Shown here piece after piece: positions 12,780-35,654 of a stretch of DNA of 64,000 nt (the first letter of the stretch is position 1; every line of letters begins with the position of its first letter). Source of the DNA: Cynocephalus volans (taxonomy: Eukaryota; Chordata; Mammalia; Dermoptera; Cynocephalidae); assembly GCF_027409185.1 (NCBI RefSeq), contig NC_084478.1, positions 81,513,624 to 81,577,623 of the forward strand, written 5' to 3'. The position numbers were made by a program, and so were the translations under genes. The notes under the pieces were generated by a model. It was not told where the DNA came from and searched no databases. It worked only from the letters and a program-made list of their open reading frames with translations.

Positions 12780-13275
12780 AGAGCTCTTCTAGGACATCAA
12801 GAAATGAATTGAACTGAATGGAAATGGCTATAAGACATCTCAAAATTTGTGGGACAAAGCTAAACCGTTGCTGAAAGGGAAGCTTGTACCATTACGTGCT
12901 TCCGTTAGACAAAAGGAAAAGTATCTAAGCAGTACTCTAAGCTGTCCACCTCAATAAACTAGAAAATGAAGAGAAAAATAAACCCTAGGCAAGCAGAAGG
13001 AAGGGAATGTGAAAGGTAAGTACAGTAATCAATGAAATGGAAAACGGAAAAACAATAGAGAAAGTCAATTAAACAAAAATGGTTTTTTGGAAAACATCAA
13101 TAAAACTTACCTCTAGCGAGGCTTACAAGGTAAACCTATGGTGATTCGCTACATTTGCACATATTCACTTAATGACTTTAATGACTATATTCGTAAAACT
13201 TTTCATATAGTCTAGGAAGCTAAACCCCTATGTTTTCAACATGAATCATACAGTGGAAAGAAGAAATAAGAGAAA
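12780..13275 (+). mobile_element. Ancient L1 ORF2 fragment
   Basis: Decayed plus-strand ORF2 sequence ('aactagaaaatgaagagaaa' near 12957, 'agaaagtcaattaaac' near 13058). A younger L1 is inserted at its right end. Confidence 0.55.
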
Positions 13276-15372
13276 CACCAAAAGCTTTTCCTTTAAGAAC
13301 AGGCACTAGACAAGGATGCCCACTCTCACCACTCCTATTCAACATAGTGTTGGAAGTACTAGCCAGAGCAATCAGAGAAGAGAAGGAAATAAAGGGCATC
13401 CAGATTGGAAAAGATGAAGTCAAACTGTCCCTGTTTGCAGATGACATGATCCTATACATCGAACAGCCTAAAACCTCTACAAAAAAACTGTTGGAATTGA
13501 TAAATGATTTCAGCACAGTAGCAGGATACAAAATCAACACACAAAAATCAGTTGCATTTCTTTTCTCCAATAGTGAACATGCAGAAGGAGAAATCAAGAA
13601 AGCCTGCCCATTTACAATAGCCACCAAAAAAATAAAATACTTAGGAATTGAGTTAACCAAGGAGGTGAAAAATCTCTATAATGAGAACTACAAACCACTG
13701 CTGAGAGAAATTAGAGAGGATACAAGAAGATGGAAAGATATTCCATGCTCTTGGATTGGAAGAATCATCATAGTGAAAATGTCCATACTACCCAAAGTGA
13801 TATACAAATTCAATGCAATCCCCATCAAAATTCCAAAGACATTTTTCTCAGAAATGGAAAAAACTATTCAGACATTTATATGGAACAATAAAAGACCACG
13901 AATAGCCAAAGCAATGCTCAGCAAAAAAAATAAAGCTGGAGGCATAACACTACCTGACTTTAAGCTATACTACAAAGCTATAGTAACCAAAACAGTATGG
14001 TACTGGCATAAAAACAGACACACTGACCAATGGAATAGAATAGAGAATCCAGAAATCAACCCTCACACTTACTGCCATCTGATCTTTGACAAAGGCACCA
14101 AGCCTATTCACTGGGGAAGGGACTGCCTCTTCAGCAAGTGGTGCTGGGATAACTGGATATCGATATGCAGGAGAATGAAACTAGATCCATACCTCTCACC
14201 GTATACTAAAATCAACTCAAAATGGATTAAGGATTTAAATATACATCCTGAGACAATAAAACTTCTTAAAGAAAATATAGGGGAAACACTTCAGGAAATA
14301 GGACTGGGCACAGACTTCATGAATACGACCCCAAAAGCACGGGCAACCAAAGGAAAAATAAACAAATGGGATTATATCAAACTAAAAAGCTTCTGCACAG
14401 CAAAAGAAACAATTAAAAGAGTTAAAAGACAACCAACAGAGTGGGAGAAAATATTTGCAAAATATACATCTGACAAAGGATTAATATCCAGAATATATAA
14501 GGAACTCAAACAACTTTACAAGAAGAAAACAAGCAACCCAATTAAAAAATGGGCAAAAGAGCTAAGTAGGCATTTCTCTAAGGAAGATATCCAAATGGCC
14601 AACAGACATATGAAAAAATGCTCAACATCACTCAGCATCCGGGAAATACAAATCAAAACCACATTGAGATACCATCTAACCCCAGTTAGGATGGCTAAAA
14701 TCCAAAAGACTATGAACGATAAATGCTGGCGAGGCTGCGGAGAAAAAGGAACTCTCATACATTGTTGGTGGGACTGCAAAATGGTGCAGCCTCTATGGAA
14801 AATGGTATGGAGGTTCCTTAAACAATTGCAAATAGATCTACCATACGACCCAGCCATCCCACTGTTGGGAATATACCCAGAGGAATGGAAATCATCAAGT
14901 CGAAGGTATACCTGTTCCCCAATGTTCATCGCAGCACTCTTTACAATAGCCAAGAGTTGGAACCAGCCCAAATGCCCATCATCAGATGAGTGGATACGGA
15001 AAATGTGGTACATCTACACAATGGAATACTACTCAGCTATAAAAACGAATGAAATACTGCCATTTGCAACAACATGGATGGACCTCGAGAGAATTATATT
15101 AAGTGAAACAAGTCAGGCACAGAAAGAGAAATACCACATGTTCTCACTTATTGGTGGGAGCTAAAAATTAATATATAAATTCACACACACACATACACAC
15201 ATACACACACAAACCAGGGGGGGGGGGGAGAAGATATAACAACCACAATTATTTGAAGTTGATACAACAAACAAACAGAATGGGCATGGTTCGGGGGGAG
15301 GGGGGGAGGGAGAAGGGAGGGAGGTTTTGGTGATGGGGAGCATTAATCAGCTACAATGTATATCGACAAAAT

Positions 15373-16935: not shown

Positions 16936-16939
16936 TTAA

Positions 16940-17333
16940 TTTTTTTTCTTTTTTTTTTTAAATTTCATTTTGTCGATATACATTGTGGCTGATTATTGTT
17001 GCCCCTCACCAAAACCTCCCTCCCTCCTCCCTCCCCCCTCCCCCAACCGATGTCCCCTCTGTTTGCTTGTCACATCAACTTCAAGTAATTGTGGTTGTTA
17101 TATCTTCTTCCCCCGCCCCCCGGTTTTTTTTTTTTATGTGTGTGTGTGAGAATTGATATATTAATTTTTAGCTCCCACCAATAAGTGAGAACGTGGTATT
17201 TCTCTTTCTGTGCCTGACTTGTTTCACTTAATATAATTCTCTCAAGGTCTATCCATGTTGTTGCAAATGGCAGTATTTCATTCGTTTTTATAGCTGAGTA
17301 GTATTCCATTGTGTAGATGTACCCTTATTGGTG
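16940..17333 (-). mobile_element. L1 3' end, left arm of inverted L1 pair
   Basis: Poly(T), then the complement of the young L1 3' UTR ('ttttgtcgatatacattgtg' near 16970) and the last part of ORF2 up to 'gtgtagatgtacc'. It abuts a plus-strand L1 3' end at about 17334, so both poly(A) tails point outward. Confidence 0.88.
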
Positions 17334-17354
17334 GGAGCTAAAAATTAATATATA

Positions 17355-17428
<74 letters not shown>

Positions 17429-17606
17429 AAAAACCGGGTGGGGGGGAGAAGATATAACAACCACAATTACTTGAAGTTGATGTGACAAGCAAACAGAGGG
17501 GACATCGGTGGGGGGAGGGGGGAGGAAGGGGGGAGGGAGATTTTGGTGAGGGGCAACAATAATCAGCCACAATGTATATCGACAAAATAAAATTAAAAAA
17601 AAAAAG
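17334..17606 (+). mobile_element. L1 3' end, right arm; left boundary of the DMRTC1 array
   Basis: Begins at 'cttattggtgggagc', contains (AC)n at 17358-17392, an A/C-rich tract, the G-rich block with 'gggacatcggtgg', and ends in 'tatatcgacaaaataaaatt' plus poly(A). The 3' halves of the L1s at 23.4-23.6 and 29.5-29.6 kb match this copy ('gaggggacatcggtgg'), not the terminal copy at 35.5 kb ('aaaggacattgttgg'). This makes it the upstream recombination partner. Confidence 0.88.
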
Positions 17607-17800
17607 AAGTCATGCTGAATTTTGAAAAGGTCAATTCCAGAATACCAAGTCCATGAGTTAAAAATGCATTCACACAAGGTATTTTCCATCCAAAGGGAGA
17701 CTAGTCTGAGAAACGAGCCTTGGGAAGCACAAAGCTGAACTTCCCCTCAGGAGCTACTGGCTAGTCTAGTAAAGAGAGCACAAGAAGCTACACGGATGTG

Positions 17801-18008
17801 GAGAGGGCGGAACTGCCGGGCGTGAGCATCAGTGGATCTCGAAGCTCATTTGTCACCGGCCGCAGAGGTGGGAGGGGGGAAGGGGGAGGTGGAAGGCAGC
17901 GCTGGAAGCTCATTGGCCTTGTAGGAAGGGCGGGAAAGGTAGCAGAAGCCGGGTTTTCCCTCAGGCCTCTTGTCCCAGCTGATCGATTCCGACCTGCTGT
18001 AGGCTTAG
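17801..18008 (+). promoter_or_regulatory. DMRTC1: Candidate promoter and non-coding exon 1, copy 1
   Basis: A GC-rich segment upstream of the first intron contains GC boxes (gggcgg at about 17805 and 17928) and an inverted CCAAT box (attgg, about 17912). It ends in a strong splice donor, TTAG|GTAAGG, after 18008. No TATA box is obvious. Splicing from here to the acceptor at 19258 would join a short 5' UTR to the ATG exon. The transcription start itself cannot be placed from sequence. Confidence 0.55.
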
Positions 18009-19262
18009 GTAAGGCTTTTGACACAGGTTTTCGTCAGGAATACCACCCTTGTTCTCCATGCCTCTTCTTTCCTCCCTCCCTCCTGCTCCGAATCCCCAGC
18101 CCCTTCCCCTCTCCTCCACCTCAGCGGGGTATCCCCACCCGCCATGACATCCCACTCAGCCCCTACACTTCCCCACACCCCTTTTGGGAGAACCCTTCGC
18201 CCCTGCCCCTGGGACAGGGCTCATGCCCCTGCCTTTTATTCGGAGGTAGGGGGAGACAGTGAGTGATCGGGCTTCCTGAGGAGATGGTACACTCCAGGAC
18301 GGTGGGGTGGAATGGGGTGTGGGGGGTGGGGCGGAGTGTGGTGATGGTGTGTGCTCAAGCACAATCGTTGAAGTGTGGAGAAGAGTATGGAAGATTGTTG
18401 GGAGGCTGCAGAGGGAGTGCATGGGTTTGCATGAAAGCAGAGAGGGTGCGTCGGCCCAAGAGAAAAATTAGTTTGATGAAGAGTTGCCGATTGGCTAGAT
18501 TAAGGCCTGGCACTTCGCAGAGGGCTCAACAAATATCTGTTGAGTAAAGAATGGAGGGAATGAATGAAGGGGTGAATGAAAACAATAATTGAAAGAGGGC
18601 TGGGGATCCAGGAGAACATTATGGTTTCATGGGGTGGAAGAGGGTATTCAGCTTAAAGGGGGAGCAAGGGAATAATTAAGATTGCAGTGGGGTGCAAGAA
18701 AAGTCAGAATGGAGTGTGAGGGGAAAACTGAACACAGGGCAAACGTGAAACTAATAGAGTTGAGTGTAGGGAGCATAAAATCCTGTGTGGCGAGTGAATG
18801 AAGGCAGGAGGTTAGGAAGACTATTGTTGATGTGGATGCCAGAAATAATAGTTGGGTTTGGCAGAATACACGATGATACACAAGAAGAGGGTGGAGTAAC
18901 TGTTGAAGGGGGCACGGGAGTACATGTGCATGCTGAAAATGAAATCTATGGCGGAGTGAAGGTAAGCAAGGAGAAGAGCGAACGGCTTGAATGTGTATGC
19001 GGCCCATGCTAAGAGTTTCTTGGTCGGGACGCTATGTATGAGTGGGGCTTCCTGGGAAGGAGGCTATGTGAGTAAGAAGGTTGGGGTGAAGGTTAGAGAA
19101 AGCCATGGGAGAACAAGGGAGGAGGCAATCTGATTCCAGTGGTGAGAGGGATGGAGAAGAAGAATCGAGCCACTTCACATAGGACTTTCCAAGGGCAAAG
19201 GAGGTACATTGGAGGGAGGGCATCACGTGGCCATTCTGACCTCCACTACTGACCCTAGAACC

Positions 19263-22200
19263 ATGGATCCCCAAGAAACACCTGCTGTGCCCTGCTGCTC
19301 CTCCAACTTGGAATGCACCACAGGGTGTGAGATCGGAGCCCCATGGGGGGGTGAACTTGTCCCCAGAAGAGATATAGGCCGCCATGACCACTGCCAGAAG
19401 CGTGACATCTCTACCCAAATCAGAGGCCACAAGCGTTTCTGCATCTTCCGGGCCTGCAAGTGTCACAATTGTACCCTCTTCTGGTGAGTATGCTGTCTGG
19501 CAAGGAGAAGGGTCAGGCCTCCTCTAAATGTGATTAACCTTAGACCTGTAATCCCTCACTTTAGGGAACACCGTCGGGTCTTGCCTGCTGTGAGTGCCTT
19601 GAAGGAGGAGCAGAGGGCAGCGCTAAAGAGGCACCTGGCTCAAAGACAGAAAAGGAGTGTGGCAGCCCCTGCCAAAGCTCACATCCCTGTCAAGAATTTG
19701 GGCATCAAAGGAGTCCTCAGTGAGTGTCTATGGCCAGGGAGTGAGCCTGAGTTTGGGTGGAGGAAGCAGGAGTAATTCTGTCACCAGTTCTATCACTGAA
19801 TTGCTATGTGGCCTTGGGCAAGTTACTCGCTGGACCTTAGCTCGCCCAAGTGTAAAACATCGTCAACATTATTTACCAAATGTTTGTGGGAATGACAGAC
19901 CGGGGAGTCGAAAAGGTCCATGGTGAGATGAGACTTCAGATTGGGGGTGGGCAGAGTGGGGTGGGGCTGAGGGGGAAAGGCTCACCAAAGCTGTCCCTGG
20001 TCTTTCACAGCTGGGAAGGTGGACATTGTGCCTCAGCCTGAGGCCCACCCCCACACAACCCCCGAGGAGGTAAGTAGAGTCTGTTGCCAGTGGGGGAGGC
20101 TCCCACCCAGCCACTGCCCAGACCCCTTCCACTGTGTCCCAAAGACGTGGGTTCCATCTCCAATCCTACCACCGTCTTGCCATGTGACCTTGGGAAAAAA
20201 ATCACTTCTCCTCCCCGGCCCTCAGTTTCCCTAGTTGCAAAATGAAAGATAAGACTGTCTGGTCTTCAAGATCTTCAGAGCTCTGGCATTCTGGGCTCCT
20301 ATCCTCATCCCCAAACATGCCCACACCTCCTCTCTCCATGGCCGACCTGGTACCTGACTCCAACCTGTGCTCTGCGCCCCTGCAGGAGAGCTCCCAAGGG
20401 GCTCTGCTCCTCGGCCAGCCCCCAGAACCTCTGTCTCTGCCCTGCACTCCAGTGACCTTGGAGCAGCAACCGATGGCTTCTCTTTCTAGGCAGCCCCACG
20501 GGTCCCCTGTCCTGTGCAGCAGGTGAGTAGAGCAAGGTCATGTCTTGTGTTGTTGTGTGCCCACCCTTGTGCTTGATGCTATGGGAGACAGGAGGAGGAA
20601 GAGGAGAAGGAGGAGGAGAAGGCAGCATCTCAGGCTAATGGGCAAGACAGGGCTCTCCCAGCTTTGCCATTTCCTACTTGTGAGGCTTTGGACAAGTGAG
20701 TTTATGTTTTTGAACCCCCCATTTCCCTATGGGTGTACTGGGGACAATATTCTACACCTATAGCATTGACAAGAGAACTAGCCTGAGGCCTGACACATAG
20801 TAGGCCTTCAACTAGTGAAAGCTGTTATTTCACATGAAACAGATAGATGGGATAGAAGGTCCTGCTGAAAAGTAGGGCCATGATGGCGACGGCCACAGAG
20901 GACCAGGGGAAAGCCCAGAGGCCGTTAGAGAAGGCTTCCTGGAGATGAGGCAAACTTGTCCGTCAAGACCCATGGGGATTGGACAGTATGGAGGCGAGAA
21001 CCAGTCCCTGAACCGGGACAGTAATCACATCTCTGCAGGTGCTTTGCAGGTAAAAGCACGGACACCTGTGTGATTTTCCATACTCTTCGCTGTTGCCCCA
21101 GGAGGAAAAAAGCTGGCAGAAATTAGTGTCTCACAAAAGATATAGAAAAAAGAGGTATGGAAAAGAAAACAGGCCAAGCAGGAGAAGAGGCTTGCCCAAG
21201 CCACGGCAGTGGCTCAGCAGGCATTCGGATTCCCACATCCAGATATTGCAGAATCCTTCCCCTCTCTCTGTTGACTGGTGCTATGTGTCTGCCACAGGGT
21301 TTAATCCCCTGGCCTCTCCTCTCCTTGTTTCTAGATGCTCAGCGCTGATCCTGCAGCCCAGTGCCACCCTTGACTCTCTTCTACTGCAGCCACAGGTCCT
21401 GGAAGAGTAGTGGGGTCCAGAACCCTGGGAGGGGCCGAACTTAGTGAATGGAAAGAACAGAAGACCTCGGGTGTTGGGCGGGGGTGCGGGCTCTCTAGAA
21501 CTGGAGGCTTCAGAGGCACTTGTCGCGTTGGAAGGAGGTATGGTTTCCCAGCCCCCATTCTCTCAAGCCCTTTCCTTTGCAGGCCGCTACAGCATCTGAC
21601 CAGGCTTTGGCTTCTGCCTCCTCAGAGTGGCAGCGGAAGCTGGAGGCTGTCGAGGCTCTGCTGAGTCTGAGACACTCTTTTCAGACCCCTTCTGACTCCA
21701 TCTCCCTCCACCAGGCCTGTGACCCACCAGGTAGCCTGCTCCTTGAGAGGACACGGGGTGGGGATGGTTGGGAATTGGGGGTTGTTGTGGTAAGCAGGTT
21801 CTAACTGGGAAATCAGGGTCGGTGGACTGAACCTCCTTGGAGCCAGCTACCCAAGCTCCTCAGTCTAACTCCTGAGATGGTCGTTGAGAACTGCTCAGTG
21901 AATCTTTAGTTTATCGAACTTTGTGCCCTTGTCCAGTGCCCTTCGTGCAGAGGTTGAGCGCCCTTTAGTCGAGAAACAAGGAAACTGAGGCCCTGAGAGT
22001 GGCAGGGACTTGCCCTAGGGCATGCAGCACACATGTTAGGTGGAAGAACCAGGTCTCCCGACTCTCCGCCCAAGGCTCTCTATCGAGACCCCTGAAGTCT
22101 TCTGTGGCCTGGGGAGGACATACAGAGGTGATAAGGGCCTAGTCTGGAAGGAGGTCTGGTCCCTGCCTTCAAGAAACTTCCAGCCTAGATGTGGAGCCTG

Positions 22201-22785
22201 GATGCCTGTACCGCCTGTGTTTTGTGGCTAAATCTCAATGGTGTGCCCAGAGAGGAAGGGCTGGAGGAGCCCTGAGGGAAGATAAACTCCTGGGAAGGCT
22301 GAGAGGGAAGGCTTGGTATTCCAAGACCAAAATGGTGGATGGGGCATGGTGTGTGAGTGAAGAGGCAACCCTGGAGGAACTAATGGAACAGAGGGAAATG
22401 GGGCTGGAGAGTCTACCAATCACGGACCAGCAGCTGTGGGTGACGAGGAGCCAGGCAACGCTTCTGAGCGAGGGAGGAGCATATTCAGAGACCCCAGCCT
22501 TGAGGAAAGAGACGTGGTGGCTGTGATGGAGGGATTGGGGAAGGCGAGAGGGGTGATGAGGAAATCAGAGAGGAAGAGGTCTGTGCAATAGTCCAGGTGA
22601 CAAATCTTCAGTTGGGTAGGACAAAAAAAGAGGGGACAGCCAGGAGGGGATATGGATGTGACCTGGCTCTGGCCTCTTCTTTTCTGTCTATAGCTTCTGC
22701 TGAAGAAAGAGGACTCCAGCCTCCCAGTCGCTCTATCGGACCCAGGCCAGACAGCTCCACCTCACTGTCTATTGGATATCTGTGA
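19263..22785 (+). CDS. DMRTC1: DMRTC1-like (DMRT8) gene, copy 1, 290 aa predicted
   Basis: DM-domain-family gene; DMRT proteins are nuclear sex- and germline-related transcription factors, and DMRTC1 is the X-linked member with a degenerate or lost DM domain. Predicted coding exons: 19263-19483, 19565-19719, 20011-20069, 20386-20522, 21335-21395, 21583-21730 and 22694-22785. All introns are GT-AG and phases agree, giving 873 nt with stop. The start has a strong context (aaccATGG) 4 bases after an acceptor. Residues 41-70 form the DM-like module: C44, H56, C60, C65, C67 and C70 are kept, H41 replaces the first Cys and R47 replaces the His of the usual NHG. Residues about 75-79 (EHRRV) continue the family helix. 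Residues 212-260 ([14 protein letters not shown]) and the C-terminus (IGYL) resemble the DMRTC1/DMRTC2 tail. The donor after the 61-nt exon (cag|gtcctg) is weak. Exon 1 is non-coding. Confidence 0.8.
19775..22090 (+). repeat. MIR relics in the introns of copy 1
   Basis: At least four MIR-type segments: 19785-19865 ('tgtggccttgggcaagttac'), 20150-20260 ('catgtgaccttggga'), 20660-20825 ('ggcctgacacatagtagg') and, in opposite orientation, 21930-22090 ('gaaactgaggccctgag'). A further relic lies in intron 1 near 18510-18560. All recur at matching positions in copies 2 and 3, so they predate the tandem duplication. Confidence 0.65.
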
Positions 22786-23062
22786 TGCATGTCCCTCTTG
22801 CGCTAGGAGCCAAGAGAAGGAGGCCTCACTAAAGCACGGCCTACCCTGTTTCTGAATGTGCGAAATGGTTAATGTGCAAAATGCTTCACATCTTTTTTCT
22901 TTTTTTTTTTAAGCCTTTAGGTGTTTTATAAGCTTTCACATCCCTTTAATTATATGGGGCAATTCCTTGACTGAGTGTGGATTTTCTTGTACCTCCATCC
23001 CACCTTACTCCTTTGGATGCTGGGGCCTTTCCAATGACTCTTATAAAAACAGGATTGTGCTA

Positions 23063-23364
23063 CCCAGAGGAATGGAAATCATCAAGTCAAAGGTATACCT
23101 GTTCCCCAATGTTCATCGCAACACTCTTTACAATAGCCAAGAGTTGTAACCAGCCCAAATGTCCACCATCAGATGAGTGGATACGGAAAATGTGGTACAT
23201 CTACACAATGAAATACTACTCAGCTATGAAAACGAATGAAATACTGCCATTTGCAACAACATGGATGGACCTTGAGTGAATTATATTAAGTGAAACAAGT
23301 CAGGCACAGAAAGAGAAATACCACATGTTCTCACTTATTGGTGAGAGCTAAAAATTAATATATA

Positions 23365-23447
<83 letters not shown>

Positions 23448-23626
23448 AAACAACCGGGGAGCGGGGAGAAGATATACCAACCACAATTACTTGAAGTTGA
23501 TGGGACAAGCAAACAGAGGGGACATCGGTGGGGGGAGGGGGGAGGGAGGGGGGAGGGAGGTTTTGGTGAGGGGCAACAATAATCAGCCACAATGTATATC
23601 GACAAAATAAAATTTAAAAAAAAAAG
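23063..23626 (+). mobile_element. Chimeric L1 3' fragment between copies 1 and 2
   Basis: Starts at 'cccagaggaatgg' directly after 'aaaacaggattgtgcta', exactly like the terminal L1 at 35095. The (CA)n tract runs 23368-23443. After it the sequence follows the upstream L1 ('gaggggacatcggtgg'). It ends in poly(A) joined to 'gaagtcatgctg', the left border of the next unit, with no second target-site duplication. AATAAA signals lie at 23445-23450 and 23606-23611. Confidence 0.9.
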
Positions 23627-23820
23627 AAGTCATGCTGAATTTTGAAAAGGTCAATTCCAGAATACCAAGTCCATGAGTTAAAAGTGCATTCACACAAGGT
23701 ATTTTCCATCCAAAGGGAGACTAGTCTGAGAAACGAGCCTTGGGAAGCACAAAGCTGAACTTCCCCTCAGGAGCTACTGGCTAGTCTAGTAAAGAGAGCA
23801 CAAGAAGCTACACGGATGTG

Positions 23821-24028
23821 GAGAGGGCGGAACTGCCGGGCGTGAGCGTCAGTGGATCTCGAAGCTCATTTGTCACCGGCCGCAGAGGTGGGAGGGGGGA
23901 AGGGGGAGGTGGAAGGCAGCACTGGAAGCTCATTGGCCTTGTAGGAAGGGCGGGAAAGGTAGCAGAAGCCGGGTTTTCCCTCAGGCCTCTTTTCCCAGCT
24001 GATCGATTCCGACCTGCTGTAGGCTTAG
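23821..24028 (+). promoter_or_regulatory. DMRTC1: Candidate promoter and non-coding exon 1, copy 2
   Basis: Same GC boxes, inverted CCAAT box and TTAG|GTAAGG donor (after 24028) as in copy 1. It differs by a few substitutions, including 'tcttttccc' where copies 1 and 3 have 'tcttgtccc'. Confidence 0.55.
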
Positions 24029-25279
24029 GTAAGGCTTTTGACACAGGTTTTCGTCAGGAATACCACCCTTGTTCTCCATGCCTCTTCTTTCCTCCCTCCC
24101 TCCTGCTCCGAATCCCCAGCCCCTTCCCCTCTCCTCCACCTCAGCGGGGTATCCCCACCCGCCATGACATCCCACTCAGCCCCTACACTTCCCCACACCC
24201 CTTTTGGGAGAACCCTTCGCCCCTGCCCCTGGGACAGGGCTCATGCCCCTGCCTTTTATTCGGAGGTAGGGGAGACAGTGAGTGATCGGGCTTCCTGAGG
24301 AGATGGTACACTCCAGGACGGTGGGGTGGAATGGGGTGTGGGGGGTGGGGCGGAGTGTGGTGATGGTGTGTGCTCAAGCACAATCGTTGAAGTGTGGAGA
24401 AGAGTATGGAAGATTGTTGGGAGGCTGCAGAGGGAGTGCATGGGTTTGCATGAAAGCAGAGAGGGTGCGTCGGCCCAAGAGAAAAATTAGTTTGATGAGG
24501 AGTTGCCGATTGGCTAGATTAAGGCCTGGCACTTCGCAGAGGGCTCAACAAATATCTGTTGAGTAAAGAATGGAGGGAATGAATGAAGGGGTGAATGAAA
24601 ACAATAATTGAAAGAGGGCTGGGGATCCAGGAGAACATTATGGTTTCATGGGGTGGAAGAGGGTATTCAGCTTAAAGGGGGAGCAAGGGAATAATTAAGA
24701 TTGCAGTGGGGTGCAAGAAAAGTCAGAATGGAGTGTGAGGGGAAAACTGAACACAGGGCAAACGTGAAACTAATAGAGTTGAGTGTAGGGAGCATAAAAT
24801 CCTGTGTGGCGAGTGAATGAAGGCAGGAGGTTAGGAAGACTATTGTTGATGTGGATGCCAGAAATAATAGTTGGGTTTGGCAGAATACACGATGATACGC
24901 AAGAAGAGGGTGGAGTAACTGTTGAAGGGGGCACGGGAGTACATGTGCATGCTGAAAATGAAATCTATGGCGGAGTGAAGGTAAGCAAGGAGAAGAGCGA
25001 TCGGCTTGAATGTGTATGCGGCCCATGCTGAGTTTCTTGGTGGGGAGGCTATGTATGAGTGGGGCTTCCTGGGAAGGAGGCTATGTGAGTAAGAAGGTTG
25101 GGGTGAAGGTTAGAGAAAGCCATGGGAGAACAAGGGAGGAGGCAATCTGATTCCAGTGGTGAGAGGGATGGAGAAGAAGAATCGAGCCACTTCACATAGG
25201 ACTTTCCAAGGGCGAAGGAAGTACGTTGGAGGGAGGGCATCACGTGGCCATTCTGACCTCCACTACTGACCCTAGAACC

Positions 25280-28200
25280 ATGGATCCCCAAGAAACACCT
25301 GCTGTGCCCTGCTGCCCCTCGAACTTGGAATGCACCACAGGGTGTGAGATCGGAGCCCCATGGGGGGCTGAACTTGTCCCCAGAAGAGCTATAGGCCGCC
25401 GTGACCACTGCCAGAAGCGTGACATCTCTACCCAAATCAGAGGCCACAAGCGTTTCTGCATCTTCCGGGCCTGCAAGTGTCACAATTGTGCCCTCTTCTT
25501 GTGAGTATGCTGTCTGGCAAGGAGAAGGGTCAGGCCTCCTCTAAATGTGATTAACCTTAGACCTGTAATCCCTCACTTTAGGGAACACCGTCGGGTCTTG
25601 CCTGCTGTGAGTGCCTTGAAGGAGGAGCAGAGGGCAGCGCTGGCAGAGCCAGCGCACCTGGCTCGAAGACTGAAAAGGAGTGTGGCAGCCCCTGCCAAAG
25701 CTCACATCCCTGTCAAGAATTTGGTCATCAAAGGAGTCCTCAGTGAGTGTCTCTGGCCAGGGAGGGAGCCTGAGTTTGGGTGGAGGAAGCAGGAGTAATT
25801 CTCTCACCAGTTCTATCACTGAATTGCTATGTGGCCTTGGGCAAGTTACTCGCTGGACCTTAGCTCGCCCAAGTGTAAAACATCGTCAACATTATTTACC
25901 AAATGTTTGTGGGAATGACAGACCGGGGAGTCGAAAAGGTCCATGGTGAGATGAGACTTCAGATTGGGGGTGGGCAGAGTGGGGTGGGGCTGAGGGGGAA
26001 AGGCTCACCAAAGCTGTCCCTGGTCTTTCACAGCTGGGAAGGTGGACATTGTGCCTCAGCCTGAGGCCCACCCCCACACAACCCCCGAGGAGGTAAGTAG
26101 AGTCTGTTGCCAGTGGGGGAGGGTCCCACCCAGCCACTGCCCAGACCCCTTCCACTGTGTCCCAAAGACGTGGGTTCCATCTCCAATCCTACCACCGTCT
26201 TGCCATGTGACCTTGGGAAAAAAATCACTTCTCCTCCCCGGCCCTCAGTTTCCCTAGTTGCAAAATGAAAGATAAGACTATCTGGTCTTCAAGATCTTCA
26301 GAGCTCTGGCATTCTGGGCTCCTATCCTCATCCCCAAACATGCCCACACCTCCTCTCTCCATGGCCGACCTGGTACCTGACTCCAACCTGTGCTCTGCGC
26401 CCCTGCAGGAGAGCTCCCAAGGGGCTCTGCTCCTCGGCCAGCCCCCAGAACCTCTGTCTCTGCCCTGCACTCCAGTGACCTTGGAGCAGCAACCGATGGC
26501 TTCTCTTTCTAGGCAGCCCCACGGGTCCCCTGTCCTGTGCAGCAGGTGAGTAGAGCAAGGTCATGTCTTGTGTTGTTGTGTGCCCACCCTTGTGCTTGAT
26601 GCTATGGGAGACAGGAGGAGGAAGAGGAGAAGGAGGAGGAGAAGGCAGCATCTCAGGCTAATGGGCAAGACAGGGCTCTCCCAGCTTTGCCATTTCCTAC
26701 TTGTGAGGCTTTGGACAAGTGAGTTTATGTTTTTGAACCCCCCATTTCCCTATGGGTGTACTGGGGACAATATTCTACACCTATAGCATTGACAAGAGAA
26801 CTAGCCTGAGGCCTGACACATAGTAGGCCTTCAACTAGTGAAAGCTGTTATTTCACATGAAACAGATAGATGGGATAGAAGGTCCTGCTGAAAAGTAGGG
26901 CCATGATGGCGACGGCCACAGAGGACCAGGGGAAAGCCCAGAGGCCGTTAGAGAAGGCTTCCTGGAGATGAGGCAAACTTGTCCGTCAAGACCCATGGGG
27001 ATTGGACAGTATGGAGGCGAGAACCAGTCCCTGAACCGGGACAGTAATCACATCTCTGCAGGTGCTTTGCAGGTAAAAGCACGGACACCTGTGTGATTTT
27101 CCATACTCTTCGCTGTTGCCCCAGGAGGAAAAAAGCTGGCAGAAATTAGTGTCTCACAAAAGATATAGAAAAAAGAGGTATGGAAAAGAAAACAGGCCAA
27201 GCAGGAGAAGAGGCTTGCCCAAGCCACGGCAGTGGCTCAGCAGGCATTCGGATTCCCACATCCAGATATTGCAGAATCCTTCCCCTCTCTCTGTTGACTG
27301 GTGCTATGTGTCTGCCACAGGGTTTAATCCCCTGGCCTCTCCTCTCCTTGTTTCTAGATGCTCAGCGCTGATCCTGCAGCCCAGTGCCACCCTTGACTCT
27401 CTTCTACTGCAGCCACAGGTCCTGGAAGAGTAGTGGGGTCCAGAACCCTGGGAGGGGCCGAACTTAGTGAATGGAAAGAACAGAAGACCTCGGGTGTTGG
27501 GCGGGGGTGCGGGCTCTCTAGAACTGGAGGCTTCAGAGGCACTTGTCGCGTTGGAAGGAGGTATGGTTTCCCAGCCCCCATTCTCTCAAGCCCTTTCCTT
27601 TGCAGGCCGCTACAGCATCTGACCAGGCTTTGGCTTCTGCCTCCTCAGAGTGGCAGCGGAAGCTGGAGGCTGTCGAGGCTCTGCTGAGTCTGAGACACTC
27701 TTTTCAGACCCCTTCTGACTCCATCTCCCTCCACCAGGCCTGTGACCCACCAGGTAGCCTGCTCCTTGAGAGGACACGGGGTGGGGATGGTTGGGAATTG
27801 GGGGTTGTTGTGGTAAGCAGGTTCTAACTGGGAAATCAGGGTCGGTGGACTGAACCTCCTTGGAGCCAGCTACCCAAGCTCCTCAGTCTAACTCCTGAGA
27901 TGGTCGTTGAGAACTGCTCAGTGAATCTTTAGTTTATCGAACTTTGTGCCCTTGTCCAGTGCCCTTCGTGCAGAGGTTGAGCGCCCTTTAGTCGAGAAAC
28001 AAGGAAACTGAGGCCCTGAGAGTGGCAGGGACTTGCCCTAGGGCATGCAGCACACATGTTAGGTGGAAGAACCAGGTCTCCCGACTCTCCGCCCAAGGCT
28101 CTCTATCGAGACCCCTGAAGTCTTCTGTGGCCTGGGGAGGACATACAGAGGTGATAAGGGCCTAGTCTGGAAGGAGGTCTGGTCCCTGCCTTCAAGAAAC

Positions 28201-28808
28201 TTCCAGCCTAGATGTGGAGCCTGGATGCCTGTACCGCCTGTGTTTTGTGGCTAAATCTCAATGGTGTGCCCAGAGAGGAAGGGCTGGAGGAGCCCTGAGG
28301 GAAGATAAACTCCTGGGAAGGCTGAGAGGGAAGGCTTGGTATTCCAAGACCAAAATGGTGGATGGGGCATGGTGTGTGAGTGAAGAGGCAACCCTGGAGG
28401 AACTAATGGAACAGAGGGAAATGGGGCTGGAGAGTCTACCAATCACGGACCAGCAGCTGTGGGTGACGAGGAGCCAGGCAACGCTTCTGAGCGAGGGAGG
28501 AGCATATTCAGAGACACCAGCCTTGAGGAAAGAGACGTGGTGGCTGTGATGGAGGGATTGGGGAAGGCGAGAGGGGTGATGAGGAAATCAGAGAGGAAGA
28601 GGTCTGTGCAATAGTCCAGGTGACAAATCTTCAGTTGGGTAGGACAAAAAAAGAGGGGACAGCCAGGAGGGGATATGGATGTGACCTGGCTCTGGCCTCT
28701 TCTTTTCTGTCTATAGCTTCTGCTGAAGAAAGAGGACTCCAGCCTCCCAGTCGCTCTATCGGACCCAGGCCAGACAGCTCCACCTCACTGTCTATTGGAT
28801 ATCTGTGA
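25280..28808 (+). CDS. DMRTC1: DMRTC1-like (DMRT8) gene, copy 2, 292 aa predicted
   Basis: Coding exons: 25280-25500, 25582-25742, 26034-26092, 26409-26545, 27358-27418, 27606-27753 and 28717-28808; phases match copy 1. Relative to copy 1 the first coding exon changes S13P, G30A, D37A, H41R, T71A and W74L. The second gains two codons near residue 95 and changes Q to R, Q to L and G to V. The DM-like module therefore has Arg at the first zinc-Cys position and Arg in place of the NHG His, keeping six of eight usual ligands. The donor after the DM exon is CTT|GTGAGT, weaker than CTG|GTGAGT in copy 1. The coding sequence is identical at protein level to copy 3. The gene is a recombinant: its 5' half carries copy-3 variants and its 3' half copy-1 variants, switching in intron 3 between about 25805 and 25941. 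Confidence 0.8.
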
Positions 28809-29085
28809 TGCATGTCCCTCTTGCGCTAGGAGCCAAGAGAAGGAGGCCTCACTAAAGCACGGCCTACCCTGTTTCTGAATGTGCGAAATGGTTAATGTGC
28901 AAAATGCTTCACATCTTTTTTCTTTTTTTTTTTAAGCCTTTAGGTGTTTTATAAGCTTTCACATCCCTTTAATTATATGGGGCAATTCCTTGACTGAGTG
29001 TGGATTTTCTTGTACCTCCATCCCACCTTACTCCTTTGGATGCTGGGGCCTTTCCAATGACTCTTATAAAAACAGGATTGTGCTA

Positions 29086-29387
29086 CCCAGAGGAATGGAA
29101 ATCATCAAGTCAAAGGTATACCTGTTCCCCAATGTTCATCGCAACACTCTTTACAATAGCCAAGAGTTGTAACCAGCCCAAATGTCCACCATCAGATGAG
29201 TGGATACGGAAAATGTGGTACATCTACACAATGAAATACTACTCAGCTATGAAAACGAATGAAATACTGCCATTTGCAACAACATGGATGGACCTTGAGT
29301 GAATTATATTAAGTGAAACAAGTCAGGCACAGAAAGAGAAATACCACATGTTCTCACTTATTGGTGAGAGCTAAAAATTAATATATA

Positions 29388-29460
<73 letters not shown>

Positions 29461-29638
29461 AAACAACCGGGGAGCGGGGAGAAGATATACCAACCACAAT
29501 TACTTGAAGTTGATGGGACAAGCAAACAGAGGGGACATCGGTGGGGGGAGGGGGGAGGGAGGGGGGAGGGAGGTTTTGGTGAGGGGCAACAATAATCAGC
29601 CACAATGTATATCGACAAAATAAAATTTAAAAAAAAAA
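29086..29638 (+). mobile_element. Chimeric L1 3' fragment between copies 2 and 3
   Basis: Nearly identical to the fragment at 23.06 kb apart from a shorter (CA)n tract (29391-29456). It shares the derived differences 'gtcaaaggtatacc' and 'atgaaatactactc', while the terminal L1 has 'gtcgaagg' and 'atggaatac'. AATAAA lies at 29458-29463 and 29619-29624. The right edge joins the unit border directly. Confidence 0.9.
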
Positions 29639-29833
29639 GAAGTCATGCTGAATTTTGAAAAGGTCAATTCCAGAATACCAAGTCCATGAGTTAAAAATGC
29701 ATTCACACAAGGTATTTTCCATCCAAAGGGAGACTAGTCTGAGAAACGAGCCTTGGGAAGCACAAAGCTGAACTTCCCCTCAGGAGCTACCGGCTAGTCT
29801 AGTAAAGAGAGCACAAGAAGCTACACGGATGTG

Positions 29834-30041
29834 GAGAGGGCGGAACTGCCGGGCGTGAGCGTCAGTGGATCTCGAAGCTCATTTGTCACCGGCCGCAGAG
29901 GTGGGAGGGGGGAAGGGGGAGGTGGAAGGCAGCACTGGAAGCTCATTGGCCTTGTAGGAAGGGCGGGAAAGGTAGCAGAAGCCGGGTTTTCCCTCAGGCC
30001 TCTTGTCCCAGCTGATCGATTCCGACCTGCTGTAGGCTTAG
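29834..30041 (+). promoter_or_regulatory. DMRTC1: Candidate promoter and non-coding exon 1, copy 3
   Basis: GC boxes, inverted CCAAT box and donor TTAG|GTAAGG (after 30041) are conserved with copies 1 and 2. Nothing in the sequence suggests that this copy is silenced. Confidence 0.55.
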
Positions 30042-31292
30042 GTAAGGCTTTTGACACAGGTTTTCGTCAGGAATACCACCCTTGTTCTCCATGCCTCTTC
30101 TTTCCTCCCTCCCTCCTGCTCCGAATCCCCAGCCCCTTCCCCTCTCCTCCACCTCAGCGGGGTATCCCCACCCGCCATGACATCCCACTCAGCCCCTACA
30201 CTTCCCCACACCCCTTTTGGGAGAACCCTTCGCCCCTGCCCCTGGGACAGGGCTCATGCCCCTGCCTTTTATTCGGAGGTAGGGGAGACAGTGAGTGATC
30301 GGGCTTCCTGAGGAGATGGTACACTCCAGGACGGTGGGGTGGAATGGGGTGTGGGGGGTGGGGCGGAGTGTGGTGATGGTGTGTGCTCAAGCACAATCGT
30401 TGAAGTGTGGAGAAGAGTATGGAAGATTGTTGGGAGGCTGCAGAGGGAGTGCATGGGTTTGCATGAAAGCAGAGAGGGTGCGTCGGCCCAAGAGAAAAAT
30501 TAGTTTGATGAGGAGTTGCCGATTGGCTAGATTAAGGCCTGGCACTTCGCAGAGGGCTCAACAAATATCTGTTGAGTAAAGAATGGAGGGAATGAATGAA
30601 GGGGTGAATGAAAACAATAATTGAAAGAGGGCTGGGGATCCAGGAGAACATTATGGTTTCATGGGGTGGAAGAGGGTATTCAGCTTAAAGGGGGAGCAAG
30701 GGAATAATTAAGATTGCAGTGGGGTGCAAGAAAAGTCAGAATGGAGTGTGAGGGGAAAACTGAACACAGGGCAAACGTGAAACTAATAGAGTTGAGTGTA
30801 GGGAGCATAAAATCCTGTGTGGCGAGTGAATGAAGGCAGGAGGTTAGGAAGACTATTGTTGATGTGGATGCCAGAAATAATAGTTGGGTTTGGCAGAATA
30901 CACGATGATACGCAAGAAGAGGGTGGAGTAACTGTTGAAGGGGGCACGGGAGTACATGTGCATGCTGAAAATGAAATCTATGGCGGAGTGAAGGTAAGCA
31001 AGGAGAAGAGCGATCGGCTTGAATGTGTATGCGGCCCATGCTGAGTTTCTTGGTGGGGAGGCTATGTATGAGTGGGGCTTCCTGGGAAGGAGGCTATGTG
31101 AGTAAGAAGGTTGGGGTGAAGGTTAGAGAAAGCCATGGGAGAACAAGGGAGGAGGCAATCTGATTCCAGTGGTGAGAGGGATGGAGAAGAAGAATCGAGC
31201 CACTTCACATAGGACTTTCCAAGGGCGAAGGAAGTACGTTGGAGGGAGGGCATCACGTGGCCATTCTGACCTCCACTACTGACCCTAGAACC

Positions 31293-34200
31293 ATGGATCC
31301 CCAAGAAACACCTGCTGTGCCCTGCTGCCCCTCGAACTTGGAATGCACCACAGGGTGTGAGATCGGAGCCCCATGGGGGGCTGAACTTGTCCCCAGAAGA
31401 GCTATAGGCCGCCGTGACCACTGCCAGAAGCGTGACATCTCTACCCAAATCAGAGGCCACAAGCGTTTCTGCATCTTCCGGGCCTGCAAGTGTCACAATT
31501 GTGCCCTCTTCTTGTGAGTATGCTGTCTGGCAAGGAGAAGGGTCAGGCCTCCTCTAAATGTGATTAACCTTAGACCTGTAATCCCTCACTTTAGGGAACA
31601 CCGTCGGGTCTTGCCTGCTGTGAGTGCCTTGAAGGAGGAGCAGAGGGCAGCGCTGGCAGAGCCAGCGCACCTGGCTCGAAGACTGAAAAGGAGTGTGGCA
31701 GCCCCTGCCAAAGCTCACATCCCTGTCAAGAATTTGGTCATCAAAGGAGTCCTCAGTGAGTGTCTCTGGCCAGGGAGGGAGCCTGAGTTTGGGTGGAGGA
31801 AGCAGGAGTAATTCTCTCACCAGTTCTATCACTGAATTGCTATGTGGCCTTGGGCAAGTTACTCGCTGGACCTTAGCTCGCCCAAGTGTAAAACATCGTC
31901 AACATTATTTACCAAATGTTTGTGGGAATGACAGACCGGGGAGTCGAAAAGGTCCGTGGTGAGATGAGACTTCAGATTGGGGGTGGGCAGAGTGGGGTGG
32001 GGCTGAGGGGGAAAGGCTCACCAAAGCTGTCCCTGGTCTTTCACAGCTGGGAAGGTGGACATTGTGCCTCAGCCTGAGGCCCACCCCCACACAACCCCCG
32101 AGGAGGTAAGTAGAGTCTGTTGCCAGTGGGGGAGGCTCCCACCCAGCCACTGCCCAGACCCCTTCCACTGTGTCCCAAAGACGTGGGTTCCATCTCCAAT
32201 CCTACCACCGTCTTGCCATGTGACCTTGGGAAAAAAATCACTTCTCCTCCCCGGCCCTCAGTTTCCCTAGTTGCAAAATGAAAGATAAGACTGTCTGGTC
32301 TTCAAGATCTTCAGAGCTCTGGCATTCTGGGCTCCTATCCTCATCCCCAAACATGCCCACACCTCCTCTCTCCATGGCCGACCTGGTACCTGACTCCAAC
32401 CTGTGCTCTGCGCCCCTGCAGGAGAGCTCCCAAGGGGCTCTGCTCCTCGGCCAGCCCCCAGAACCTCTGTCTCTGCCCTGCACTCCAGTGACCTTGGAGC
32501 AGCAACCGATGGCTTCTCTTTCTAGGCAGCCCCACGGGTCCCCTGTCCTGTGCAGCAGGTGAGTAGAGCAAGGTCATGTCTTGTGTTGTTGTGTGCCCAC
32601 CCTTGTGCTTGATGCTATGGGAGACAGGAGGAGGAAGAGGAGAAGGAGGAGGAGAAGGCAGCATCTCAGGCTAATGGGCAAGACAGGGCTCTCCCAGCTT
32701 TGCCATTTCCTACTTGTGAGGCTTTGGACAAGTGAGTTTATGTTTTTGAACCCCCCATTTCCCTATGGGTGTACTGGGGACAATATTCTACACCTATAGC
32801 ATTGACAAGAGAACTAGCCTGAGGCCTGACACATAGTAGGCCTTCAACTAGTGAAGGCTGTTATTTCACATGAAACAGATAGATGGGATAGAAGGTCCTG
32901 CTGAAAAGTAGGGCCATGATGGCGACGGCCACAGAGGACCAGGGGAAAGCCCAGAGGCCGTTAGAGAAGGCTTCCTGGAGATGAGGCAAACTTGTCCGTC
33001 AAGACCCATGGGGATTGGACAGTATGGAGGCGAGAACCAGTCCCTGAACCGGGACAGTAATCACATCTCTGCAGGTGCTTTGCAGGTAAAAGCACGGACA
33101 CCTGTGTGATTTTCCATACTCTTCGCTGTTGCCCCAGGAGGAAAAAAGCTGGCAGAAATTAGTGTCTCACAAAAGATATAGAAAAAAGAGGTATGGAAAA
33201 GAAAACAGGCCAAGCAGGAGAAGAGGCTTGCCCAAGCCACGGCAGTGGCTCAGCAGGCATTCGGATTCCCACATCCAGATATTGCAGAATCCTTCCCCTC
33301 TCTCTGTTGACTGGTGCTATGTGTCTGCCACAGGGTTTAATCCCCTGGCCTCTCCTCTCCTTGTTTCTAGATGCTCAGCGCTGATCCTGCAGCCCAGTGC
33401 CACCCTTGACTCTCTTCTACTGCAGCCACAGGTCCTGGAAGAGTAGTGGGGTCCAGAACCCTGGGAGGGGCCGAACTTAGTGAATGGAAAGAACAGAAGA
33501 CCTCGGGTGTTGGGCGGGGGTGCGGGCTCTCTAGAACTGGAGGCTTCAGAGGCACTTGTCGCGTTGGAAGGAGGTATGGTTTCCCAGCCCCCATTCTCTC
33601 AAGCCCTTTCCTTTGCAGGCCGCTACAGCATCTGACCAGGCTTTGGCTTCTGCCTCCTCAGAGTGGCAGCGGAAGCTGGAGGCTGTCGAGGCTCTGCTGA
33701 GTCTGAGACACTCTTTTCAGACCCCTTCTGACTCCATCTCCCTCCACCAGGCCTGTGACCCACCAGGTAGCCTGCTCCTTGAGAGGACACGGGGTGGGGA
33801 TGGTTGGGAATTGGGGGTTGTTGTGGTAAGCAGGTTCTAACTGGGAAATCAGGGTCGGTGGACTGAACCTCCTTGGAGCCAGCTACCCAAGCTCCTCAGT
33901 CTAACTCCTGAGATGGTCGTTGAGAACTGCTCAGTGAATCTTTAGTTTATCGAACTTTGTGCCCTTGTCCAGTGCCCTTCGTGCAGAGGTTGAGCGCCCT
34001 TTAGTCGAGAAACAAGGAAACTGAGGCCCTGAGAGTGGCAGGGACTTGCCCTAGGGCATGCAGCACACATGTTAGGTGGAAGAACCAGGTCTCCCGACTC
34101 TCCGCCCAAGGCTCTCTATCGAGACCCCTGAAGTCTTCTGTGGCCTGGGGAGGACATACAGAGGTGATAAGGGCCTAGTCTGGAAGGAGGTCTGGTCCCT

Positions 34201-34821
34201 GCCTTCAAGAAACTTCCAGCCTAGATGTGGAGCCTGGATGCCTGTACTGCCTGTGTTTTGTGGCTAAATCTCAATGGCGTGCCCAGAGAGGAAGGGCTGG
34301 AGGAGCCCTGAGGGAAGATAAACTCCTGGGAAGGCTGAGAGGGAAGGCTTGGTATTCCAAGACCAAAATGGTGGATGGGGCATGGTGTGTGAGTGAAGAG
34401 GCAACCCTGGAGGAACTAATGGAACAGAGGGAAATGGGGCTGGAGAGTCTACCAATCACGGACCAGCAGCTGTGGGTGACGAGGAGCCAGGCAACGCTTC
34501 TGAGCGAGGGAGGAGCATATTCAGAGACCCCAGCCTTGAGGAAAGAGACGTGGTGGCTGTGATGGAGGGACTGGGGAAGGCGAGAGGGGTGATGAGGAAA
34601 TCAGTGAGGAAGAGGTTTGTGCAATAGTCCAGGTGACAAATCTTCAGTTGGGTAGGACAAAAAAAGAGGGGACAGCCAGGAGGGGACATGGATGTGACCT
34701 GGCTCTGGCCTCTTCTTTTCTGTCTATAGCTTCTGCTGAAGAAAGAGGACTCCAGCCTCCCAGTCGCTCTATCGGACCCAGGCCAGACAGCTCCACCTCA
34801 CTGTCTATTGGATATCTGTGA
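31293..34821 (+). CDS. DMRTC1: DMRTC1-like (DMRT8) gene, copy 3, 292 aa predicted
   Basis: Coding exons: 31293-31513, 31595-31755, 32047-32105, 32422-32558, 33371-33431, 33619-33766 and 34730-34821. The predicted protein is identical to copy 2, including Arg at the first zinc-ligand position and the Ala-Glu-Pro-Ala segment near residue 95. Single-base differences from copies 1 and 2 cluster in its 3' half but fall in introns or flanks (for example near 31955, 32857, 34248 and 34277), so exons 4-8 match the other copies. This is probably the right-hand ancestral copy, because it alone retains the original 3' flank beyond the L1. No AATAAA was seen in its terminal L1, unlike copies 1 and 2, so its polyadenylation site is unclear. 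Confidence 0.8.
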
Positions 34822-35094
34822 TGCATGTCCCTCTTGCGCTAGGAGCCAAGAGAAGGAGGCCTCACTAAAGCACGGCCTACCCTGTTTCTGAATGTGCGAA
34901 ATGGTTAATGTGCAAAATGCTTCACATCTTTTTTTTTTTTTTAAGCCTTTAGGTGTTTTATAAGCTTTCACATCCCTTTAATTATATGGAGCAATTCCTT
35001 GACTGAGCGTGGATTTTCTTGTACCTCCATCCCACCTTACTCCTTTGGATGCTGGGGCCTTTCCAATGACTCTTATAAAAACAGGATTGTGCTA

Positions 35095-35637
35095 CCCAGA
35101 GGAATGGAAATCATCAAGTCGAAGGTATACCTGTTCCCCAATGTTCATCGCAACACTCTTTACAATAGCCAAGAGTTGTAACCAGCCCAAATGTCCACCA
35201 TCAGATGAGTGGATACGGAAAATGTGGTACATCTACACAATGGAATACTACTCAGCTATAAAAACGAGTTAAATACTGCCATTTGCAACAACATGGATGG
35301 ACCTTGAGAGAATTATATTAAGTGAAACGAGTCAGGCACAGAAAGAGAAATACCACATGTTCTCACTTATTGGTGAGAGCTAAAAATTAATATATAATTC
35401 ACACACACACACACACACACACAGACACACACACACACACACAAAAAAACCCGGGGGGTGGGGAAGAATATATAACAACCACAACTACTTTAAGTTGATG
35501 CGACAAGCAAGCAGAAAGGACATTGTTGGTGGGGAGGCGGGAAGGGAGGAGGGAGGGAGGTTTGGGTGAGGGGCAACAATAATCAGCCACAATGTATATC
35601 GACATTATAAAATTTAAAAAAAAAAAACCAAAACAAC
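35095..35637 (+). mobile_element. Ancestral L1 3' fragment with 17-bp target-site duplication
   Basis: A 5'-truncated L1 end (last part of ORF2, CA repeat with an 'ag' interruption at 35399-35443, G-rich block, poly(A)). It is flanked on both sides by 'aaaacaggattgtgcta' (35078-35094 and 35638-35654). The usual 'gacaaaataaaa' end is mutated to 'gacattataaaa', so no AATAAA remains. Confidence 0.93.
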
Positions 35638-35654
35638 AAAACAGGATTGTGCTA

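What the first reader, a model, noticed from the sequence alone, without database searches (positions are those of the whole stretch)
17607..35637. Triplicated, apparently intact DMRTC1-like gene in a 6-kb head-to-tail array
Seen: three complete units, each with promoter, splice sites and an open multi-exon frame (290, 292 and 292 codons). Known: DMRTC1/DMRT8 is X-linked and is also multi-copy in some other placental mammals (a pair in human, several in mouse). Inference: this L1-mediated array looks like an independent, lineage-specific amplification, which fits the pattern of X-linked testis genes becoming ampliconic.
Basis: partly seen in the sequence, partly recalled or inferred. Interest (0 to 1): 0.85.

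Follow-up and report, generated by a model that had tools for sequence, protein, structure and literature searches.

The report
Young, decaying DMRTC1 gene triplet
In what is very likely a colugo genome, the mammalian gene DMRTC1 sits in three near-identical tandem copies, of which the middle one is a mosaic likely born by unequal crossover between the other two; all three share a stop codon ahead of the protein tail that most relatives keep and lack two residues predicted to hold zinc, so they probably do not work as normal DNA-binding proteins.

Summary
The array is real: three head-to-tail units (period 6,020 and 6,013 bp), each with seven coding exons, GT/AG introns and open frames of 290, 292 and 292 codons. 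The gene is DMRTC1 (DMRT8); in a tree it joins a Galeopterus protein, so the genome is very likely a colugo's. The mechanism can be read off. The two junction L1s are chimeric (5' part from the right L1 with its target-site copy, 3' part from the left L1) and identical outside a CA repeat: one L1-L1 recombination likely founded two copies. The middle unit resembles unit 3 on its left and unit 1 on its right, the signature of an unequal crossover inside the gene. "Intact" does not hold: all three copies have TGA where most relatives have a tail glycine, cutting seven residues, and lack two of eight DM zinc ligands. Copies 2 and 3 encode the same protein. X-linkage, promoter activity and expression were not shown. 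Mouse, rat and rabbit have three Dmrt8 genes in an X cluster (PMC3406020, passage), so this is a new case of a known pattern with an unusually legible, young history.

The parts
17604..23623 (+). Unit 1 (parent A), 6,020 bp, from the end of the left L1 poly(A) to the end of the first junction L1
23624..29636 (+). Unit 2 (mosaic: left part like unit 3, right part like unit 1), 6,013 bp
29637..35654 (+). Unit 3 (parent B), ending in the right L1 and its 3' target-site copy
19263..22785 (+). DMRTC1 copy 1, coding exons 19263-19483, 19565-19719, 20011-20069, 20386-20522, 21335-21395, 21583-21730, 22694-22785; 290 codons plus stop
25280..28808 (+). DMRTC1 copy 2, coding exons 25280-25500, 25582-25742, 26034-26092, 26409-26545, 27358-27418, 27606-27753, 28717-28808; 292 codons plus stop
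31293..34821 (+). DMRTC1 copy 3, coding exons 31293-31513, 31595-31755, 32047-32105, 32422-32558, 33371-33431, 33619-33766, 34730-34821; 292 codons plus stop, protein identical to copy 2
22783..22785 (+). Shared early TGA (copy 1; the same at 28806-28808 in copy 2 and 34819-34821 in copy 3), seven codons ahead of the former stop
19781..22211 (+). Interval (unit 1 coordinates) in which unit 2 passes from unit-3-like to unit-1-like; also the stretch that is nearly the same in all three units (narrowest reading of the switch: 19781-19919, intron 2)
17324..17605 (+). Left L1 3' end (one inferred recombination partner), abutting an antisense L1 3' end at about 16939-17323
23061..23623 (+). Chimeric junction L1 between units 1 and 2
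29084..29636 (+). Chimeric junction L1 between units 2 and 3, identical to the first outside the CA repeat
35078..35654 (+). Right L1 3' end (other inferred recombination partner) with both copies of its 17-bp target site AAAACAGGATTGTGCTA, at 35078-35094 and 35638-35654

Best explanation
This is a young tandem triplet of the DMRTC1 gene, likely built in two recombination steps from a copy that probably had already lost its C-terminal tail and two zinc ligands of its DM domain. Step 1 (inferred from the chimeric L1s): non-allelic homologous recombination between two like-oriented L1 3' ends flanking the single gene made two copies, A and B. Step 2 (inferred from the mosaic): an unequal crossover between A and B, inside the gene between intron 2 and intron 6, added a middle copy with B's left half and A's right half; conversion (inferred) made the middle of all three nearly identical. 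Shown directly: the mosaic, the chimeric L1s, the open frames, the shared TGA and the changed ligand positions. Function is inferred: the products can probably be translated but would not bind DNA as normal DM proteins; if they act, it would be through the retained C-terminal DMRTC1/C2 region, and drift towards pseudogenes is about as likely.
For: Chimeric junctions: 5' parts match the right L1 at 263/270; 3' parts match the left L1 at 159/165 against 146/162 for the right L1; the two junctions are identical in both parts (270/270, 165/165). The right L1 keeps both 17-bp target-site copies; the junctions keep only the 5' one and run on into the left L1's downstream flank. Mosaic: of 51 sites or indels where unit 1 or unit 3 is the odd one out, 32 are unit-1-odd (all at or before 19780) and 19 unit-3-odd (18 from 19920 on, one at 17758): 3 runs, 0 of 100,000 shuffles as low; the same with the complex change in exon 2 counted once (45 sites). 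Units 1 and 3 differ at 2/2431 in the middle against 39/3350 outside (p 1.7e-7, bounds chosen after seeing the sites); a stretch that long with at most 2 differences arose in 0 of 20,000 random placements. Unit 2 has 5 private substitutions. Decay: TGA in all three with a former tail still readable behind it; PF15791 match ends at 113/119 in window proteins against 119/119 in 6 of 6 relatives given; ligand positions read H-C-R-H-C-C-C-C (copy 1) and R-C-R-H-C-C-C-C (copies 2, 3) against C-C-H-H-C-C-C-C in two lemurs and two equids.
Against: Of 33 columns where left and right L1 differ, the first junction follows the left at 21, the right at 11 and neither at 1; the early ones are mostly right and the later mostly left, but not cleanly, partly because the CA repeat aligns poorly. 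The unit-3-odd sites 17758, 19920 and 20820 may be private to unit 3, so the crossover point is not fixed. Conversion of unit 2 by its neighbours could give the same mosaic, though the third copy would then need another event. Open frames and canonical splice sites speak against advanced decay, and window and Galeopterus proteins have similar numbers of derived substitutions in the shared part (6 and 5, five positions unclear). The tail glycine is not universal (E or D in several rodents), and 9 of 51 database relatives end otherwise, which I read as alternative or partial predictions. Loss of zinc ligands is common in the family: 22 of 27 other DM-bearing rows lack at least one, so it does not by itself mark these copies as dead.
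Confidence: 0.8

Rival explanations
1. Assembly artefact: the true locus has two copies, and the assembler walked once too often round the repeat, printing a middle unit made of B's left and A's right half.
For: An extra loop through a collapsed middle would give exactly the order A, B/A, B seen; the middle is near-identical over 2.4 kb.
Against: A looped copy would carry no letters of its own; unit 2 has 5 private substitutions spread over the unit, and the CA repeats at the two junctions differ in length (38 and 33 units). Consensus errors or a second haplotype could mimic part of this.
Confidence: 0.1
2. Functional dosage array: the three copies are kept by selection because more of a truncated DMRTC1 product is useful in germ cells.
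For: Open seven-exon frames and splice sites kept in three copies; DMRTC1 is multi-copy in other mammals (PMC3406020, passages); retained PF15791 region.
Against: The copies are so young (5 private substitutions in about 5.8 kb) that open frames say little about present selection; at 1% divergence a neutral frame of this sequence stays free of stops 75% of the time, indels not counted. Tail and two zinc ligands are lost. Between copies 1 and 2 in exons 1-2, 9 nonsynonymous changes per 284 sites against 2 synonymous per 85.
Confidence: 0.3
3. Pseudogene cluster: the array is a duplicated by-product, and an intact DMRTC1 with its tail lies elsewhere in the same genome.
For: The Galeopterus record P0004 keeps the tail; exon 7 differs from it at 8/30 residues against 6/158 elsewhere (p 0.0003), though both lineages contribute; the diverged exon 1-2 block could come from such a donor by conversion.
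Against: No frameshift or lost splice site in any copy; no other DMRTC1 stretch in the window (51 database proteins, E up to 0.01). The genome could not be searched.
Confidence: 0.3

Closest known systems
Dmrt8 (Dmrtc1) three-gene cluster on the X of mouse, rat and rabbit (Veith et al. 2006, as described in PMC3406020; Veith itself not read)
   Same: Same gene family, three copies in one cluster
   Different: The window array looks like a separate, much younger event (window proteins join each other before Galeopterus); direct 6-kb units with L1 junctions; the window copies still read a recognisable DM domain, whereas the title of Veith et al. calls the mouse genes DM domain-less
Human X segmental duplication labelled DMRTC1B (120 kb, PMC7484160, one passage)
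   Same: DMRTC1 region duplicated
   Different: Window units are 6 kb, three in number, head to tail
Galeopterus variegatus DMRTC1-like protein (P0004)
   Same: 174/189 residues identical
   Different: Keeps the C-terminal tail; the record starts within exon 2 and lacks the DM part; copy number unknown
Hybrid genes made by unequal crossover in tandem arrays (opsins, globins; recalled)
   Same: Parents A and B flanking a B/A hybrid
   Different: Here the hybrid's protein equals copy 3's, because the copies do not differ in coding sequence beyond exon 2

Membership tests
DMRTC1 (DMRT8) | DMRTC1/C2 C-terminal domain (PF15791) | tested here: met
   E 5e-38, above cut-off, but profile positions 2-113 of 119 only
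DMRTC1 (DMRT8) | Groups with DMRTC1 rather than DMRTC2 in a tree | tested here: met
   Window proteins join Galeopterus_C1 (100/100); the five DMRTC2 rows form one group (100/100). Caveat: midpoint root, deep branching mostly unresolved, and a starred branch (100/97) puts dugong and horse DMRTC1 next to DMRTC2
DMRTC1 (DMRT8) | C-terminal tail like ...GHLGCISLL | tested here: not met
   TGA at the glycine position in all three copies; motif found in 37 of 51 database relatives, five more with a variant tail by eye, nine ending otherwise
DM-domain DNA-binding proteins | Pfam DM domain | tested here: met
   31.6 and 33.1 bits, cut-off 27; mouse lemur 47.9, fruit-bat DMRTC2 74.2
DM-domain DNA-binding proteins | Eight zinc ligands C-C-H-H-C-C-C-C (which residues are ligands is recalled) | tested here: not met
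   Six of eight kept; first C is H or R, first H is R. 7 of 7 DMRTC2 rows keep all; 5 of 27 other DM-bearing rows do
DM-domain DNA-binding proteins | Binds DNA | not testable with these tools
   Needs a binding assay
X-linked ampliconic gene | Lies on the X chromosome | tested here: inconclusive
   No neighbour gene recognised by Pfam in 30 of the 53 flank frames of 95 codons or more or with recalled PABPC1 and FAM236 proteins; genome search unanswered
X-linked ampliconic gene | Testis expression | not testable with these tools
   No RNA data held
L1-mediated tandem duplication (NAHR) | L1 at the junction that is a chimera of two flanking L1s | tested here: met
   (3' part 159/165 to the left L1, 5' part 263/270 to the right L1; column-by-column pattern not perfectly clean); target-site logic

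The most novel reading that the evidence does not exclude
A DM gene that can no longer hold its zinc properly and has lost its tail is being copied up in colugos within the last few hundred thousand years, with the number of copies varying between animals, so that DMRTC1 amplification serves a role without DNA binding, for example as a blunt partner that competes with its relative DMRTC2 in germ cells.
Probability: 0.12. Interest if true: 0.7.

Novelty: new member of a known kind. Interest (0 to 1): 0.38.

Why it matters
DMRTC1 has been multiplied in several placental lineages although its DNA-binding part seems to be eroding: here 22 of 27 DM-bearing relatives (several from the same families, so not independent) lack at least one zinc ligand, while 7 of 7 DMRTC2 proteins keep all. 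A triplet young enough that each recombination step can still be read offers a clean case for asking whether such copies are kept for dosage or merely tolerated, and the middle hybrid is a ready marker for copy-number variation in colugos.

Tried and rejected
Pfam on 30 of the 53 flank frames of 95 codons or more gave only the L1 reverse transcriptase above its cut-off (frame count). Positive selection on the DM exons: left unclaimed, because silent and noncoding sites close by are as diverged (p 0.81). Rfam: 13 matches, none reaching its gathering score; no tRNA by ARAGORN. Twin-priming origin of the left L1 pair: rejected, because the antisense piece carries its own 3' end and a poly(T) run. 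In the first Fisher test of exon 7 I entered 9 differences; the count is 8, redone.

Full report
What is there. A self-comparison shows three direct units: 17324-29638 against 23334-35625 at 98.8% and 17324-23411 against 29357-35443 at 98.7%. The unique parts start at 17604, 23624 and 29637. Copies 2 and 3 encode the same protein; copy 1 differs in exons 1-2 only.

Identity. Pfam gives DMRT-like C1/C2 (PF15791, E 5e-38) and a DM domain (PF00751, 31.6 and 33.1 bits, cut-off 27) for copies 1 and 2. The DM part matches DMRT1 (4yj0, E 5e-9) and Doublesex (1lpv, E 2e-5) in the PDB. The protein search returned 51 relatives, 47 with a DMRTC1 or DMRTC2 type of name and 4 'hypothetical'. By score the best are lemur DMRTC1 proteins (69% over the whole length); by identity the closest is a DMRTC1-like protein of Galeopterus variegatus (174/189). 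In a tree of 20 rows (copies 1 and 2 entered; copy 3 is the same protein as copy 2) the window rows pair (99/94) and then join Galeopterus (100/100); deeper branching is mostly unresolved, and a starred branch puts dugong and horse DMRTC1 beside DMRTC2. I infer a colugo. Which genus is not settled: 8% protein difference suits the other genus or a paralogue. PMC11928578 (passages) names a Cynocephalus volans genome, mCynVol1.

How the array arose. The two junction L1s are identical outside the CA repeat. Their 5' parts match the right L1 (263/270) and carry its upstream flank and target-site copy; their 3' parts match the left L1 (159/165) better than the right L1 (146/162) and run into the left L1's downstream flank. 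Column by column the first junction follows the left L1 at 21 and the right at 11 of 33 differing columns, one neither; early columns are mostly right, later mostly left, with exceptions. The right L1 keeps both copies of its 17-bp target site. This is what recombination between the left and right L1 would leave, and identical junctions point to one founding event.

The middle unit. Of 51 sites or indels at which unit 1 or unit 3 is the odd one, 32 have unit 1 odd, all at or before 19780; 19 have unit 3 odd, 18 of them from 19920 on and one at 17758. There are 3 runs; none of 100,000 shuffles was as low. Seven of the 32 belong to one complex change in exon 2; counted once, the result is the same (45 sites, 3 runs, 0 of 100,000). 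Unit 2 is B-like on the left and A-like on the right, the expected extra product of one unequal crossover between A and B. The stretch 19781-22211 is nearly the same in all: units 1 and 3 differ at 2/2431 there and 39/3350 outside, the six-base complex change left out (p 1.7e-7, bounds chosen after seeing the sites); so long a stretch with at most two differences came up in 0 of 20,000 random placements. I infer conversion. Unit 2 has five substitutions of its own, which speaks against an assembly loop. With a recalled rate of 2.2e-9 per site and year these give about 0.4 million years for unit 2 and 2.6 for A-B; both are rough.

Not intact. All three frames end at a TGA where most relatives have glycine in ...IGHLGCISLL; behind it the frame still reads C-M-S-L-L-R and then TAG, so seven residues are cut off. 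In alignment A1 the glycine stands in 11 of 12 other rows, the twelfth having a gap. In the 51 database proteins the tail motif (searched anywhere in the protein) is in 37; five more have a variant tail by eye; nine end otherwise, which I read as alternative or partial records without testing it. Several rodents have E or D at the glycine. The six DMRTC2 proteins printed have the same tail with serine for cysteine. PF15791 matches end at 113/119 in the window but at 119/119 in 6 of 6 relatives given. Of eight zinc ligands (assignment recalled) the window copies lack two: the first cysteine is histidine (copy 1) or arginine (copies 2, 3), the first histidine is arginine. Among 27 other DM-bearing rows, 5 keep all eight (two lemurs, two equids, black rhinoceros), 22 do not; two of the 22 have a gap at the last ligand, several come from the same families, and some bear other DMRT names. 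7 of 7 DMRTC2 rows keep all. Rows without a DM part were not in that count.

Selection. Between copies 1 and 2, exons 1-2 (complex change dropped: two codons of copy 1, four of copy 2) have 9 nonsynonymous changes in 284 sites and 2 synonymous in 85, one of the two lying next to the complex change. The nonsynonymous rate exceeds that of silent plus noncoding sites over the whole left part (16 of 1,883; p 0.003) but not that of the silent and noncoding sites close by (8 of 293; p 0.81). I read it as no visible constraint and do not claim positive selection. Against Galeopterus, 6 window-derived and 5 Galeopterus-derived substitutions can be polarised in the shared part, five positions being unclear and the lost tail apart; exon 7 is fast (8/30 against 6/158, p 0.0003).

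Setting. No other gene was recognised within 17 kb left or 28 kb right, with the limits told under Tried and rejected, so X-linkage rests on where DMRTC1 lies in other mammals. PMC3406020 (passages read) says that mouse, rat and rabbit have three Dmrt8 genes in a cluster on the X, that two are testis-specific in mouse while the third is in fetal ovary germ cells, and that human DMRT8 has a stop 3' of the DM domain. PMC7484160 (one passage) labels a 120-kb X segmental duplication DMRTC1B. PMC7689362 (passages) says DMRT8 lacks a complete DM domain, gives 6-7 exons, and lists one copy each in human and mouse. PMC6737965 (passages) calls the molecular function of DMRT8 not yet known. A search for colugo, X chromosome and DMRT together found no paper in the library.

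Verdict. The array and its L1 origin are well supported; the copies are not intact by comparison with most relatives; the middle copy is most likely a crossover hybrid; function is open. A new case of a known pattern with an unusually readable history.

Noticed in passing
13245-15161: L1 ORF2 part open for 639 codons (reverse transcriptase PF00078, 70.9 bits), 2 kb upstream of the array; an L1 of the same kind as the junction L1s (96% over 338 bp).
   Followed up: partly
16939-17605: Two L1 3' ends head to head at the left edge of the array: an antisense one with poly(T) (about 16939-17323) abutting the sense one (17324-17605).
   Followed up: partly
23445, 23606, 29458, 29619: AATAAA signals lie in the junction L1s behind copies 1 and 2; neither AATAAA nor ATTAAA was found behind copy 3 between its stop and 36600.
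   Followed up: partly
45911-46255 and 52831-53175; 46224-46773: An 89% direct repeat pair, and an inverted repeat that gives miRNA-family matches below Rfam's gathering scores.
   Followed up: no
P0052-P0069, P0005, P0009, P0013: The fourth zinc-ligand position (H of GHK) is Q or E in 17 of 18 records P0052-P0069 and in three squirrel-family records, suggesting an old or repeated loss in DMRTC1-like proteins.
   Followed up: partly
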